From positions 1-64,000 of the forward strand of contig JANJTP010000043.1 of the NCBI GenBank assembly GCA_024711025.1: DNA of 64,000 nucleotides, in the 5' to 3' direction. Every line of letters starts with the position of its first letter. Within the stretch, counting starts at the first letter, position 1. The notes under the pieces were generated by a model that worked only from the letters and a program-made list of their open reading frames with translations, did no database searches and was not told the origin of the DNA. This DNA comes from Solirubrobacteraceae bacterium (GTDB lineage: Bacteria > Actinomycetota > Thermoleophilia > Solirubrobacterales > Solirubrobacteraceae). Positions 12,428-57,335 of this stretch are shown one piece after another. The position numbers and the translations under genes were made by a program.

Positions 12428-15004
<2,577 letters not shown>

Positions 15005-15006
15005 GG

Positions 15007-15029
15007 ATCTAAGTGTAGTCGACTGAGAT
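15007..15029 (-). promoter_or_regulatory. HAIR-like inverted repeat upstream of clpB; candidate HspR operator
   Basis: + strand ATCTAAGT-gtagtcg-ACTGAGAT; lies within a promoter-like TTGACG-N16-TACACT (15039-15012). Confidence 0.7.
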
Positions 15030-15190
15030 TTTGCGTCAAGCACGGGTGCCGACGGCGTCGGCGGGCGGGGGGGCGGGGGACGCGCCGGGGACGGCGGGGT
15101 GGGCGGGCGCGGCGGGGACGGGGCGGCAGGCCTTGCCAGACCGGTACACACCGACGACGCGTCGCGTCTTCGTCTTGGGGCTACCGGAGC

Positions 15191-15304
15191 GTGGGAAACG
15201 TCGATCTCGCGTGCTTCGAGTCTCACCGCCTTACGTTTGCCACGTTCTGGCGTGGGCAAGGTCGAGCGGTGCCGACGAGCGCTCGCGAAGTCGACGTTCA
15301 CCAC
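15191..15304. repeat. 114-bp imperfect palindrome, copy 1 (54-bp arms, 6-bp loop TTCTGG)
   Basis: GTGGGAAACGTCGATCTCGCG...CACCGC...CCACG-TTCTGG-CGTGG...GCGGTG...CGCGAAGTCGACGTTCACCAC; 34 of 54 arm positions pair by hand alignment. Confidence 0.75.
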
Positions 15305-15341
15305 ACGTAGACCCCACCCCACCACACGTAGACCCCACCCC

Positions 15342-15550
15342 CGCGACCCTGCCAATGACGACCCGCCCCGCGAGCCCCCACGACCTGCCAACGACGACCC
15401 CGGCGAGCCCCCGCGACCTGCCAACGACGACCCCGGCGAGCCCGCCCCGCGACCCGGCCAACGACGACCGGGTCCACGGCTCCCGCGCGATGCGCCGGTT
15501 CGTCCCGCAACCTGCCCCGCGACCCTGCCAATGACGACCCGCCCCGCGAC
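15342..15550. repeat. Degenerate short tandem/direct repeats, unit about CGACC(C)TGCCAAYGACGACCC
   Basis: CGACCCTGCCAATGACGACCCGCCCCGCGA occurs twice, with intermediate variants CGACCTGCCAACGACGACCCCGGCGAGCCC (x2) and CGACCCGGCCAACGACGACCGGG. Confidence 0.8.
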
Positions 15551-15625
15551 GACGCGACGCGTGATGCGCCGCAATCGCCGCAGCCCACGACTGCGACGAA
15601 GCGCTCCGGGGCGGTGGATCCGCGC

Positions 15626-16114
15626 TCAGCGTTCCCGCTCGACCGGGATCCGCCGCGCCGAGCGCGGGGGCGTGCGCACGTCGGACGCGCGGACGATCGC
15701 GGTCGAGTGGCGGATCGGCACGAGCTCGCCGCGCATCGAGCGGCGCACGCTGTCGAGCTCGGCCTCGAGCTCCTCGCGCATCCGCCGGCTGCGCGCCTCG
15801 AGCTGCTCGAGCCGGCGCCGGGCGCCCTCGAGCTGCGCCTCCAGCTCCAGCACGCGCTCGACCCCGGCGAGGTTGAGGCCCAGCTCGGTCGTCATCTCCT
15901 GGATGCGCCGCAGCCGCTCGACGTCGGCCTGCGAGTAGAGCCGCGTCCCCTTCGGCGAGCGCTGGGGCTCGATCAGCCCGCGCGCCTCGTACATCCGCAG
16001 GGTCTGCGGGTGCATGTCGGCCAGCTCGGCGGCGACCGAGATCATGAAGACGCCGCGCTCGACGTCGACCGAGATCCGGGTGCGCGTGCGCGGCGGGCGG
16101 CCGGGATGCGCCAT
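15626..16114 (-). CDS. hspR: MerR-family heat-shock repressor HspR
   Basis: VFMISVAAELADMHPQTLRMYEARGLIEPQRSPKGTRLYSQADVERLRRIQ; follows dnaK-grpE-dnaJ. Confidence 0.92.
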   Translation of the reverse strand: MAHPGRPPRTRTRISVDVERGVFMISVAAELADMHPQTLRMYEARGLIEPQRSPKGTRLYSQADVERLRRIQEMTTELGLNLAGVERVLELEAQLEGARRRLEQLEARSRRMREELEAELDSVRRSMRGELVPIRHSTAIVRASDVRTPPRSARRIPVERER

Positions 16115-21487: not shown

Positions 21488-23038
21488 GTGTCGCGCCGCC
21501 TGCCGCCCTGGGCGGTCACCGCCGTCGGCGCCGTCGCCTGGCTGATCGCGGACCCGCCGACGCCCGACCTGGTCGCGCACCTCTACCGCGCCGAGATCGT
21601 CCGCGAGGCCGGGCTCGGAGTCTGGGAGCAGGGCTGGTACGCCGGCCACCACCTGCCGGGCTACAGCGTGCTGATGCCGCCGCTGGCGGCGCTGACGACG
21701 CCGCAGCTCGTCGCCGCGCTCGCCGCCGTCGCCTCCACCTGGTGCTTCACCGCCCTGGCGCGCTCGCACTGGGGCGCGCAGGCGGCCGGTGCCGCCGCGC
21801 TTTGGTTCGCGCTCGCGGCGCTCTCGCCGCTCGTCGGCGGTCAGCTCGCATTCGCCGCCGGGATGGCGCCCGCCCTCGGCGCGCTGCTCGCCGGCGCCCG
21901 CGACCGGCGAGCGCTCGCCGGCGGCCTCGCGGCGGCGACGACGCTGACGAGCCCGGTCGCCGCCGCCTTCCTGCTCCTCGCGGTCGCCGCCTGGTGGCTC
22001 GCGGCGCGCCCTCGCGCCGCGGTCTGGGTCGCGGCCGGGGCGATCGCGCCCGGGGCGCTGATCCTGGTCGCGTTCCCGCAGGGCGGTACGCAGCCGTTCG
22101 CGTTCAGCTCGTTCGCCTGGTCGCTCGCCGTCGCCCTCGTGCTGCTCGTCGTCGCGGGCCGTCGCGAGGCGGCGCTGCGCTGGGGCGCTGCGCTGTACGC
22201 GCTCGTCCTGGTCACCGGCGTGACACTCGACACCCCGCTCGGCGGCAACCTGGTGCGCCTCGCAGCGGTCTTCGCCGGCCCGCTCGCCGCGGGAGCGCTG
22301 TGGCCCGAGCGCCGGCTGCTCCTCGCGCTGCTCGCCGTGCCGCTGCTCTACTGGCAGTGGCTCGCCCCGGTGCGCTCGGTGATCCGCGCGAGCGGCGACC
22401 CGGCGGCGCACGCGGCATTCCATGCCCCGCTGATCGCCGAGCTCGACCGCCGCGCCACGCGCGAGGGCCCGATGCGCATCGAGGTCCCGTTCACCGCGAA
22501 CCACTGGGAGACCCGCTACCTCCCGCTGCGCCATCCGATCGCACGCGGCTGGGAGCGCCAGCTCGACGTGCGGGACAACCCGATCTTCTACGACGCCGGC
22601 GCGCTCACGCCCACCCGCTACCGGCGCTGGCTCGACGACCTCGCGGTCCGCTACGTCGCGCTGGCCGCGACGCGCCCCGATCCCGCGGGGCGCGACGAGG
22701 CGCGCCTCGTCCGCTCCGGCGCCGTGCCCGGGCTGCGTGAGGTCTGGCACGGCGGAGCCTGGCGGCTGTTCGAGGTCCAGCGCGCGCGCCCGCTGGCGAG
22801 CGCGCCCCTGCGCGTCACCCGCCTCGGCGTCGACGAGGTGGCCCTGAGCGGCAGCCGAGCCGGGACCGTGCGCGTGCGGTTCACCCCGTACTGGAAGCTG
22901 GTCGAGGGGGCGGGCTGCGTCTCGCGCGCGCCGGACGGCTGGACGCGGGTGCGCCTCGACCGCCCCGGCGGCGCCCGGCTCGCGGTGCGCTTCAGCCTCG
23001 CGCGCATCGGCGCCGACGGCCCGCGCTGCACGCGCTGA
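21488..23038 (+). CDS. Polytopic integral membrane protein of unknown function
   Basis: 516 aa with multiple hydrophobic segments in the first about 320 aa and a soluble C-terminal region. Confidence 0.75.
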   Translation: MSRRLPPWAVTAVGAVAWLIADPPTPDLVAHLYRAEIVREAGLGVWEQGWYAGHHLPGYSVLMPPLAALTTPQLVAALAAVASTWCFTALARSHWGAQAAGAAALWFALAALSPLVGGQLAFAAGMAPALGALLAGARDRRALAGGLAAATTLTSPVAAAFLLLAVAAWWLAARPRAAVWVAAGAIAPGALILVAFPQGGTQPFAFSSFAWSLAVALVLLVVAGRREAALRWGAALYALVLVTGVTLDTPLGGNLVRLAAVFAGPLAAGALWPERRLLLALLAVPLLYWQWLAPVRSVIRASGDPAAHAAFHAPLIAELDRRATREGPMRIEVPFTANHWETRYLPLRHPIARGWERQLDVRDNPIFYDAGALTPTRYRRWLDDLAVRYVALAATRPDPAGRDEARLVRSGAVPGLREVWHGGAWRLFEVQRARPLASAPLRVTRLGVDEVALSGSRAGTVRVRFTPYWKLVEGAGCVSRAPDGWTRVRLDRPGGARLAVRFSLARIGADGPRCTR

Positions 23039-36515: not shown

Positions 36516-36538
36516 TCGGAGCGCCTTGGCCGGGGCCG

Positions 36539-36634
36539 CGGGGTGACCGGGGTGCGACGACTCGGGCCGGCCGGCACGGGGCCGGGGGGTGACCGAGCGA
36601 GCGACGACCCGGGCCGACCGGCAACGCAGGGGCC
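36539..36634. repeat. Two degenerate direct repeats (GGGGTGACCG...GCGACGACYCGGGCCGRCCGGCA)
   Basis: ggggtgaccggggtgcgacgactcgggccggccggca and gggggtgaccgagcgagcgacgacccgggccgaccggca. Confidence 0.65.
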
Positions 36635-36636
36635 AT

Positions 36637-36750
36637 GTGGCCAACGTCGATCTCGACGTGCCGCCGCGCCACCGGTTGACGAAACACACGCTCGGGCGTG
36701 GCTTTTGCAGACGGGTGGCCGGCGCGGTCAACGAACCTGGCGAAACCCAC
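36637..36750. repeat. 114-bp imperfect palindrome, copy 2 (54-bp arms, 6-bp loop CTCGGG)
   Basis: GTGGCCAACGTCGATCTCG...CACCG...CACG-CTCGGG-CGTG...GGGTGG...CCCAC; ungapped alignment to copy 1 with shared blocks AACGTCGATCTCG, CACCG, CACG-N6-CGTGG, CCACACG. Confidence 0.75.
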
Positions 36751-36895
36751 ACGGATCGGCGCTGGAGGGCAGCGAAGCCGTGCGAGACCCTGCGCTGTCC
36801 GGCCCAGCCGCGCCACAGAGGCGACGCACGCCGCCTGCTCGTGCCGGCCCCCGCCCCACTCACCGCCGCTCAGCGCCGCGCCCGCCGCACACCAC

Positions 36896-46881: not shown

Positions 46882-47033
46882 GCCTCAGGCCAGCCCGTCG
46901 CTCAACGCTCGTCACGCGGGAGCGACAGCGTCAGCGCGAGGCCGACCGGCGGCAGCGCCGCAAGCAACACGAGGACGGTCGTGGGCCACTGTGATCCTCA
47001 AACGCATGTCCTCTCCCTGCGCGGCGCGCCTGC

Positions 47034-47726
47034 CTACTCCCTGGCGCGTACGAGCGCCAGCCGTACCCTCGCCGAGAGCGATGCGTTCGCCGCCGCGACC
47101 GGGTAGGGCTCTGTCGAGCGGAGGCTCGCCACGAAGCCCTCCACGGTCTCCCCAACGGCGCGCTCACCGATGATGTACGACGACCGCGGCCGGCCGATCC
47201 CGGTAATCGTGTCACCCTTCAACGGCAGCACCGTCGTGTACGAGTACGGACCCCACGTGCCGTCGATCAGCACGAGCGGCGAGAGGAACCGCTCGCCGAC
47301 CTCCATGCGAGGGCCGTCGCCGCCCGCCATCGGGATCTTCTCTCCGTCCTTGACGGACCATCCCCACCCCTCGAACGTCGCCTCGGCCGGGAGCGGCGGC
47401 GCCTCGACCCGGCTCCAAAGCGCCTTCTCGAAGCGTACAGTCAGCACGCGCGACGCATACCCCTCGCCGACCGCCTGCTCCTCCGCGGACAACGGGCGCT
47501 CCCGCTCGCTGAGCACCGTGATGATCGCCGCATGATCGGCGAACGACACGACATCCCGGAGACTGCGAGCCGGAAACATCTCCTCGGCTTGGGCGAGGAC
47601 GAGCGACCGGTCATCGGACGATGGGCCCGCCATTCGGAGGGCGGTGACACCTGCGGCGACGAGCAGCGCAACAGCGACGACGAGACCACCCCGCCGCACA
47701 CCCCGGCTGCGCATCGCGCTGATCAT
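47034..47726 (-). CDS. Membrane-anchored/secreted hypothetical protein, paralogue A
   Basis: MISAMRSRGVRRGGLVVAVALLVAAGVTALRMAGPSSDDRSLVLAQAEEMFPARSLRDVVSFADHAAIITVLSERER...; near-duplicate at 48832-49566. Confidence 0.75.
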   Translation of the reverse strand: MISAMRSRGVRRGGLVVAVALLVAAGVTALRMAGPSSDDRSLVLAQAEEMFPARSLRDVVSFADHAAIITVLSERERPLSAEEQAVGEGYASRVLTVRFEKALWSRVEAPPLPAEATFEGWGWSVKDGEKIPMAGGDGPRMEVGERFLSPLVLIDGTWGPYSYTTVLPLKGDTITGIGRPRSSYIIGERAVGETVEGFVASLRSTEPYPVAAANASLSARVRLALVRARE

Positions 47727-48831: not shown

Positions 48832-49566
48832 TCAGGGCTCCGTGTCGGTCTTGGCTTGGTTTGCTTCCTCGTCGGCGCGTACGAGCGCGAGCCGTTCTCT
48901 CGCCGAGAGCGATGCGTTCGCCGCCGCGACCGGGTAGGGCTCTGTCGAGCGGAGGCTCGTCACGAAATCCTCCACGGTCTCCCCAACGGCGCGCTCACCG
49001 ATGATGTACGACGACCGCGGCCGGCCGATCCCGGTGATCGTGTCACCCTTCAACGGCAGCACCGTCGTGTACGAGTACGGGCTCCACGTGCCGTCGATCA
49101 GAACGAGCGGAGAGAGGAACCGCGCACCGACCTCCAGTCGCGGCCCGTTGCCGCTCACAAGGGGTACCTTCTCGCTGCCCTTGACGGACCACCCCAAGGC
49201 GTCGATCGTCGCGTCGGCGGGAAGAGGTGGAGCCCCGGCCCTGCTCCACAGCGGCTTCTCAAAGCGCAGCGTAATCTCGCGCGGCGCGTATCCCTCGCCG
49301 GCCGCCTGCTCTTCGGCGGACATCGGGCGCTCCCGCTCGCTGAGCACCGTGATGATGGCTACGTGATCGGCGAACGACGCGACATCCCGGAGATCTCCCG
49401 ACGGGAACACCTCGTCGGCTTGGCCCAGCACGAGCGGCCGATCGTCGGACGATCGAACCAACGAGACAGCCACGGCGGTCGTTAACGTGAGCAGCACAGC
49501 GGCAGCGGTCGCCAGGTAGACCCGTCGCATGCGCGGCCCGTGGCGCGTGCCCATGTCTTGACTCAT
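48832..49566 (-). CDS. Membrane-anchored/secreted hypothetical protein, paralogue B
   Basis: MSQDMGTRHGPRMRRVYLATAAAVLLTLTTAVAVSLVRSSDDRPLVLGQADEVFPSGDLRDVASFADHVAIITVLSERER... Confidence 0.75.
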   Translation of the reverse strand: MSQDMGTRHGPRMRRVYLATAAAVLLTLTTAVAVSLVRSSDDRPLVLGQADEVFPSGDLRDVASFADHVAIITVLSERERPMSAEEQAAGEGYAPREITLRFEKPLWSRAGAPPLPADATIDALGWSVKGSEKVPLVSGNGPRLEVGARFLSPLVLIDGTWSPYSYTTVLPLKGDTITGIGRPRSSYIIGERAVGETVEDFVTSLRSTEPYPVAAANASLSARERLALVRADEEANQAKTDTEP

Positions 49567-56279: not shown

Positions 56280-57335
56280 CTACTGGAAGTCGAAGAACTG
56301 CACGATGCCCTGCACGTAGACCGTTCCGGTCGTGCTGCTCGTGAAGTCGATCTCCGCCAGCGCGGGATCGCTCGCGTCCGGCTTGCCGCTCGACAGCGCG
56401 TATCCGGGGATGCGGCGCGTAAGCGTCGTGCCGGCCTCCGGGTCGGTGGTCGACGGCGTCCTGTCGTAGCCGAAGACGATCCCGGTTGCGGCTTCGGTGA
56501 CCGTCATGAACGCGCCGGCGTTACCCGCCACAGCGGCGTTGCCGGCCTCGGCCGTGCGCATCGCGGCGGTGATGAAGATCCTGTCCCCATCCGCGACATC
56601 CACGAGGATCCCGCCCGACGCCTGCGCAGCATTGTTTCCGTCGTCGGGCACGTTGCCGCTCCAGAGCGTGCCGAGGGCTTCAGGCGCTCCGCCGCCCGAC
56701 GGCTGCTTCCACAGCACGGCGACCCCGTACTCGAGGCCGTCGAGGTCGGTGCCGGGGCCGGCGGGCCCGACGAGGCCCTGCGGACCTTCCGGACCCACGT
56801 CGCCCTGCGGCCCTTGCGGGCCCGTGTCGCCCGTGTCGCCCTTCAGACCAGCGGGCCCCGCGTCACCCGTGTCACCCTTCGGACCGGCCGGCCCCGCGTC
56901 GCCCGTGTCGCCCTTCGCACCTGCCGGGCCCGCGTCGCCCGTGTCGCCCTTCGGACCGGCAGGGCCCGCGTCACCCTGCGGCCCCTGCGGCCCGGTGGCG
57001 CCCCTGGCCCCGGCATCGCCCTTCGGCCCCGCCGGCCCCGGCGCCTCCAGCAGGCTCTTCAGCGAAGGCGCCAGGTCGGCGACGGTGAGCGAGCCGTTCT
57101 TGACGTGAGCGCCGCTGAGCGACCCGCTCTTGAGATCGCTGCCCGTCAGCGACTTGTTCTTGATGTGGGCACCCGTGAGGGTCCCCTTCTTGACATCGGC
57201 GCCCGTGATCGTCGCCGCCGCCATCGCGGTACCCCCGCCCAGGACCGCAAATGCCAGCGCGGCCACGCCCAACGGCTCGCGCGCAATCCGCGCAAAGACT
57301 CGCTTGTGCAAGTCGCACACTCCTTTGTGAGACAT
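56280..57335 (-). CDS. Collagen-like secreted protein with N-terminal decapeptide repeats
   Basis: [43 protein letters not shown] followed by [12 protein letters not shown]-type G-X-Y repeats. Confidence 0.85.

What the first reader, a model, noticed from the sequence alone, without database searches (positions are those of the whole stretch)
15191..15304. 114-bp imperfect palindromic element, copy 1, between clpB and hspR
Seen: a 54-bp arm, 6-nt loop (TTCTGG) and 54-bp arm, with paired blocks at symmetric positions (GTGG/CCAC, AACGTCGA/TCGACGTT, TCGCG/CGCGA, CACCGC/GCGGTG, CCACG/CGTGG); the unpaired interior gaps also match in length (12 nt each side). It is intergenic, falls outside the real clpB start, and matches no feature I recognise. 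Inference: a structured repeat (REP/MITE-like), a structured RNA, or a multi-half-site protein-binding array. Its tie to copy 2 makes it the strongest candidate for something undescribed here.
Basis: partly seen in the sequence, partly recalled or inferred. Interest (0 to 1): 0.82.

Follow-up and report, generated by a model that had tools for sequence, protein, structure and literature searches.

The report
Dispersed 118-bp four-half-site DNA element
The palindrome is one of about 15 scattered non-coding DNA elements in this Solirubrobacterales genome, nearly all exactly 118 bases long with the same four short sites at the same spacing, which looks like the docking array of an unknown DNA-binding, probably DNA-moving, protein rather than an RNA.

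Summary
In detail: a 118-bp imperfect palindrome lies at 15189-15306 in the 621-bp hspR-clpB gap, with a second copy at 36635-36752. Self-pairing alone is unremarkable in this GC-rich window. Recurrence is what makes it real. A covariance model finds 15 strong copies (at least 77 bits; next hit 33) in the 3.14-Mb genome, 14 of them exactly 118 bp. None overlaps a predicted gene.

Each copy is an array of four half-sites, RYGKGGNNWWCGYCRANC, in → ← → ← order at positions 1, 42, 62 and 103 (period 61). Half-sites are conserved (66% pairwise identity against 26% expected). Spacers and flanks are near chance, and paired columns do not covary. This argues for a double-stranded protein-binding array and against a structured RNA.

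Same-motif elements are absent from the relatives searched. Two other genera of the family carry analogous elements with different half-sites but the same 61-bp period. Relatives have a 50-58-bp hspR-clpB gap, so the copy sits in inserted DNA. Two near-identical copies bracket an inserted island of about 5.8 kb beside metK.

Best reading: a non-autonomous, BIME/MITE-like element recognised by an unidentified multimeric recombinase-type protein. Mobility is inferred. A chromosome-organising site is the main rival.

The parts
15189..15306 (.). 118-bp element, copy C14a (the finding)
   Evidence: CM R1 match 101.8 bits, E 6e-21, full length (C14a was also a training copy)
15189..15204 (+). half-site 1, GCGTGGGAAACGTCGA
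   Evidence: leave-one-out PWM 18.7 bits at expected offset
15230..15245 (-). half-site 2, ACGTGGCAAACGTAAG on the - strand
   Evidence: leave-one-out PWM 12.5 bits at expected offset
15250..15265 (+). half-site 3, GCGTGGGCAAGGTCGA
   Evidence: leave-one-out PWM 17.3 bits at expected offset
15291..15306 (-). half-site 4, GTGTGGTGAACGTCGA on the - strand
   Evidence: leave-one-out PWM 22.9 bits at expected offset
15005..15625 (.). 621-bp hspR-clpB gap; 50-58 bp in eight close relatives, so about 570 bp of lineage-specific inserted DNA holding the element and GC-rich tandem repeats
12428..15004 (-). clpB (flanking gene)
   Evidence: Pfam ClpB_D2-small, Clp_N, AAA_2
15626..16114 (-). hspR (MerR family, flanking gene)
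   Evidence: Pfam MerR_1
36635..36752 (.). 118-bp element, copy C14b (copy 2), in the 380-bp convergent gap 36516-36895
   Evidence: CM R1 91.4 bits (also a training copy), gap
36635..36650 (+). copy 2 half-site 1, ATGTGGCCAACGTCGA
36676..36691 (-). copy 2 half-site 2
36696..36711 (+). copy 2 half-site 3
36737..36752 (-). copy 2 half-site 4

Best explanation
A lineage-specific family of dispersed, non-coding 118-bp elements. Each is a rigid array of four half-sites (forward, inverted, forward, inverted; period 61 bp) for one unidentified oligomeric DNA-binding protein. Shown: the family, its fixed geometry, conservation concentrated in the half-sites, absence of pairing covariation, intergenic placement, insertion into ancestrally tight gene junctions, and two near-identical copies bracketing an inserted island. 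Inferred: the protein is a transposase- or recombinase-type enzyme that assembles as a tetramer or synaptic complex on the four half-sites, so the element is a non-autonomous mobile unit (MITE/BIME-like) moved in trans, and pairs of copies can move or capture DNA between them. The palindrome is then a by-product of inverted half-sites, not a hairpin selected as RNA.
For: 15 copies at 77-103 bits against 33 for the next hit; 14 exactly 118 bp, one 119. Four of the 15 (C62, C61b, C60, C21) were not in the model and are also exactly 118. Over 60 half-sites G12 is 60/60, G3 and G5 59/60, A16 57/60. Leave-one-out placement at the expected offset 56/56. Half-site identity 0.66 vs 0.26 expected, spacer1 0.29 vs 0.31, spacer2 0.38 vs 0.32, flanks 0.33-0.34 vs 0.33-0.34. 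No covariation. No copy overlaps a predicted gene. hspR-clpB gap 621 bp vs 50-58 bp in eight relatives. metK and its neighbour have convergent stops -4 to 42 bp apart in 14 relatives but 5.8 kb apart here, with copies C12a and C12b near the two edges, 90.5% identical over 137 bp and unrelated beyond. Same 61-bp period with different half-sites in two other genera.
Against: No target-site duplication. No autonomous element found with these ends, and no Y1/RAYT transposase. Apart from C12a/b the copies show no sign of recent copying: spacers are near chance similarity, so neutral mobile copies should have lost their half-sites too, which points to selection in place. The closest sampled congener (G005, metK 88% identical) has none, although it is only 73% complete.
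Confidence: 0.5

Rival explanations
1. A chromosome-organising or topology site: a host protein (a gyrase-like enzyme, a nucleoid protein or an SMC-type loader) binds the four half-sites, and each copy is kept by selection in place.
For: Half-sites conserved while spacers are near chance; fixed 118-bp geometry; no tail of decayed copies between 77 and 33 bits; flanking genes share no function; several junctions are convergent or codirectional, as for BIMEs. BIMEs bind gyrase and IHF (PMC2817692).
Against: No same-motif element in the sampled congeners, including a 99% complete one, and the motif differs between genera; a core host function should be more stable. C12a/b at the edges of an island suggest mobility.
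Confidence: 0.27
2. An attachment or recombination site: islands or cassettes integrate at the element by site-specific recombination, leaving a copy at each edge.
For: An island of about 5.8 kb (PIN toxin, IS66 transposase, AraC-type regulator) sits between C12a and C12b at a junction that is closed in relatives.
Against: One case only; no integrase gene was recognised among the island ORFs scanned; most other copies stand alone. An incoming site from another copy would be about 57% identical, not 90%.
Confidence: 0.1
3. Operators of a regulon.
For: Symmetric half-sites at fixed spacing, intergenic; one copy lies in a heat-shock gene cluster.
Against: Flanking genes are mixed housekeeping genes (metK, TypA/PGI, DUF1385/release factor, pyruvate kinase, glutamate dehydrogenase) and several copies lie between convergent genes, away from promoters.
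Confidence: 0.06
4. A structured RNA or long hairpin acting in transcripts.
For: Some copies fold far better than shuffles (C13 z -8.2, C62 z -8.1).
Against: Other copies do not (C60 and C61b between -0.5 and -2.3); pairing and covariation equal to shuffles on 14 copies; no Rfam family.
Confidence: 0.05

Closest known systems
BIMEs / REP clusters (bacterial interspersed mosaic elements; PMC2817692)
   Same: Extragenic short units, regularly spaced, in alternating orientation; several copies at convergent or codirectional junctions.
   Different: Unit is a 16-18-bp half-site, not a 20-40-bp stem-loop REP; copy number about 15, not over 100; strict 61/118-bp geometry with near-random spacers; no GT(A/G)G head.
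REPINs with RAYT transposase (PMC3116915)
   Same: Two inverted conserved 16-mers with a length-constrained, poorly conserved spacer, scattered in extragenic DNA.
   Different: Four half-sites, no compensatory changes (common in REPINs), no Y1/RAYT gene, few and divergent copies.
CGTC-tagged REPs (PMC3733652)
   Same: CGTC in the motif; that family also lacks a known transposase.
   Different: No 8-9-bp stem with 4-5-nt loop per half-site, and CGTC is inside a conserved half-site rather than an unpaired end tag.
MITEs and MITE-bounded composites (TIME-COMP, IMU; PMC13367494)
   Same: Short non-coding element with inverted ends; two copies bracket a several-kb segment containing foreign genes.
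   Different: No target duplication, no matching autonomous transposon, inner half-site pairs besides the terminal ones.
Integron attC sites
   Same: 57-141-bp imperfect palindromes with variable centres (own knowledge).
   Different: R-box RYYYAAC not met: a position that must be a pyrimidine is G in 54/60 half-sites.

Membership tests
REPIN/RAYT | two inverted conserved 16-mers per unit | tested here: met
   four, in two inverted pairs
REPIN/RAYT | compensatory changes that keep a hairpin | tested here: not met
   pairing and covariation equal to shuffles
REPIN/RAYT | Y1 (RAYT) transposase in the genome | tested here: not met
   PF01797 absent in own genome, 97% complete
BIME | regularly spaced units in alternating orientation | tested here: met
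   forward, inverted, forward, inverted; period 61
BIME | each unit a 20-40-bp REP stem-loop with GT(A/G)G head | tested here: not met
   half-site consensus has no internal stem-loop and no such head
BIME | binding of gyrase / IHF | not testable with these tools
   needs ChIP or a binding assay
CGTC REP | CGTC end tag, 8-9-bp stem, 4-5-nt loop, CCA tail | tested here: not met
   consensus set against the description in PMC3733652
MITE | terminal inverted repeats | tested here: met
   half-sites 1 and 4, plus an inner pair
MITE | target-site duplication | tested here: not met
   no consistent flanking direct repeat in 15 copies
MITE | cognate autonomous transposon with the same ends | tested here: inconclusive
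   exact half-site scan of own genome: 8 of 9 matches are in 118-bp elements, 1 in coding DNA; 72-contig draft
MITE | element-bounded dispersal or empty sites | tested here: met
   C12a/b share 137 bp in unrelated flanks; element lies in DNA absent from relatives at two junctions
Integron attC | RYYYAAC / GTTRRRY boxes | tested here: not met
   G at a pyrimidine position in 54/60 half-sites
Structured RNA (Rfam) | match to a family and covariation | tested here: not met

The most novel reading that the evidence does not exclude
A previously undescribed class of DNA element in the Solirubrobacterales, defined by geometry rather than sequence: a 61-bp-period lattice of alternating half-sites whose recognition sequence is rewritten from genus to genus together with an unknown multimeric DNA-binding enzyme that moves or captures DNA at gene junctions.
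Probability: 0.3. Interest if true: 0.75.

Novelty: new variant of a known kind. Interest (0 to 1): 0.52.

Why it matters
Dispersed bacterial repeats are usually recognised by sequence similarity. Here the sequence between sites is near chance, yet length and spacing are exact in 14 of 15 copies, and the same 61-bp lattice recurs in other genera with a different motif. Such families escape ordinary repeat searches (BLAST found only two other copies in the genome, one of them partial), and the pattern points to an unknown protein assembly that reads four sites at fixed distance. If it moves DNA, it is a new handle on how gene junctions and islands evolve in these little-studied actinobacteria.

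Tried and rejected
Rfam scan: no family. Structured RNA: covariation counts on 11 and 14 copies no better than shuffles; RNAalifold consensus only -3.8 kcal/mol. BLAST of copy 1 against 100 relatives gave only short matches of 23-49 bp; the four loci read lack the palindrome and look like ordinary coding DNA. Consensus pattern over genome contigs and viral contigs: 0 hits, while the pattern does find its own copies. RAYT/Y1 transposase: none. Target-site duplication: none. Intrinsic orientation of the element: no clear asymmetry. Early idea that C28 is a single 57-bp unit: wrong, it is a full 118-bp copy. A sequence-free architecture scan of the hspR loci of relatives did not separate signal from GC-rich coding background. 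No close match in plasmids or phages; one 35-bp plasmid hit lies under an annotated PIN-domain gene.

Full report
WHAT IS THERE. The element at 15189-15306 is an imperfect palindrome of 118 bp in the 621-bp gap between hspR (15626-16114, -) and clpB (12428-15004, -). Its pairing alone (34/54 ungapped) is matched or exceeded elsewhere in the GC-rich window, for example in coding DNA at 21907-22015. Folding is better than dinucleotide shuffles (z -3.0 and -5.0).

A FAMILY IN THIS GENOME. BLAST of copy 1 in its own 3.14-Mb draft genome found only two other convincing copies, one of them over part of its length. A motif search for the terminal sequence exposed more. A covariance model from 11 copies then gave 15 strong copies (77-103 bits), a weak one at C68:1387-1497 (33 bits), then noise at 21 bits. 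Four of the 15 were not used for training. Fourteen are exactly 118 bp and one is 119 bp. None overlaps a predicted gene.

ANATOMY. Ungapped alignment shows four half-sites, RYGKGGNNWWCGYCRANC, at positions 1 (+), 42 (-), 62 (+) and 103 (-), so the same inverted pair occurs twice with a period of 61 bp. Over 60 half-sites G12 is invariant, G3 and G5 are 59/60 and A16 is 57/60. A leave-one-out weight matrix puts 56 of 56 half-sites of the fourteen 118-bp copies at the expected position within a +/-12-bp window. Half-site columns are 66% identical between copies against 26% expected from composition. Spacer columns 24-33 are at 29% against 31%, spacer columns 86-95 at 38% against 32%, and flanks at 33-34% against 33-34%. 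The few bases just inside each half-site (17-23, 34-41, 78-85, 96-102) are also partly conserved, at 50-61%.

DNA SITE, NOT RNA. With the long-hairpin or two-hairpin structure imposed, the percentage of paired cells and the covariation score equal those of column shuffles. The symmetric positions are conserved independently, not as pairs. Fold z-scores per copy range from about -0.4 to -8. No Rfam family matches. A protein that reads double-stranded half-sites explains this better than RNA pairing does. This step is inference from the pattern of conservation.

WHO ELSE HAS IT. The model finds no significant same-motif element in 60 relatives including 16 congeners. The tool scores a limited number of candidates per genome, but 12 candidates were enough to recover 11 of the 15 own-genome copies. 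An exact consensus pattern finds nothing in 85,488 species genomes or in viral contigs, though records very near the window's genome may be left out there. In 299 genomes of the class, one weak hit (G246, genus g19; E 1.4e-4) proved to be an analogous element: 118 bp, period 61, half-site of AACGTCACTCA type, with a second copy on contig C87. In G020 (genus g5) two loci share one geometry (half-site cores at 0 on -, 23 on +, 61 on -, 84 on +) with a GGTGCN...GTCGACG half-site, and a third locus has one pair. So the lattice recurs while the recognised sequence changes. This rests on five loci in two genomes and needs a systematic scan.

INSERTION HISTORY. HspR relatives place the organism in the Solirubrobacterales. 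In eight close relatives hspR and clpB are 50-58 bp apart, with the clpB-proximal inverted repeat ATCTAAGTCTGCTAGACTTAGAT. In the window that proximal part is kept in altered form and about 570 bp is extra: the element plus GC-rich tandem repeats. A second junction is clearer. In 14 relatives metK and a bPH2-domain gene are convergent with stops -4 to 42 bp apart. Here they are separated by 5.8 kb holding a PIN-family toxin, an IS66 transposase and an AraC-type regulator. Element copies C12a and C12b sit near the two edges, 90.5% identical over 137 bp, with unrelated sequence beyond. This is one case, and the event could be composite transposition, duplication of the element on integration, or recombination at it.

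MECHANISM. Shown: family, geometry, conservation pattern, intergenic insertion, bracketing of an island. Inferred: a multimeric protein binds all four half-sites. The best candidate is a transposase- or recombinase-type enzyme, because the elements are lineage-specific, lie in DNA absent from relatives and include an element-bounded duplicate pair. Against mobility: no target duplication, no autonomous partner found, no Y1 transposase, and spacers so diverged that selection in place is the simplest reason for the kept half-sites. A host chromosome-organising or topology protein is therefore a serious rival, and the two can be combined (an old mobile element put to use).

COMPARISON. BIMEs have regularly spaced REPs in alternating orientation and bind gyrase and IHF (PMC2817692). 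REPINs are inverted 16-mers with length-constrained spacers, compensatory changes and a RAYT (PMC3116915). CGTC-tagged REPs lack a known transposase (PMC3733652). MITE-bounded composites move segments between two copies (PMC13367494). The element works like these in layout but fails defining tests of each (see membership test), so it is not filed as a member. I rate it a new variant of the dispersed-palindromic-repeat kind.

Noticed in passing
window 15004-15040 and L158, L161-L165, L167, L208 upstream of clpB: Relatives share a near-perfect inverted repeat ATCTAAGTCTGCTAGACTTAGAT just before clpB (a likely HspR/HAIR-type operator); in the window it is altered to AATCTCAGTCGACTACACTTAGATC.
   Followed up: partly
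L128 4882-10339 (G000:C12:81381-86838): Inserted island with PIN toxin, IS66 transposase and AraC-type gene between the ancestrally adjacent metK and bPH2-domain genes, bracketed by two element copies.
   Followed up: partly
L132, L128, L130, L129 just right of the element; window 15304-15345: Five copies (C61a, C12b, C13, C15, C14a) are followed by partial tandem repeats of their right end, at about 72-77 bp spacing in three of them.
   Followed up: partly
window 15339-15549: Imperfect tandem repeats CCCCGCGACCCTGCCAAYGACGACC in the hspR-clpB insertion.
   Followed up: no
window 47031-47330 and 48862-49161: 300-nt direct repeat, 91% identical, near two long gene gaps.
   Followed up: no
window 56758-57045: 36-bp-period tandem repeat array.
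   Followed up: no
L160, L161, L167: Public MAG records titled 'Bifidobacterium breve' encode an HspR 77-79% identical to this Solirubrobacterales one; the titles are probably wrong.
   Followed up: no
L139 1230-1311 and 1830-1911 (G246): 82-nt inverted repeats (82% complementary) on either side of the analogous element in G246.
   Followed up: no
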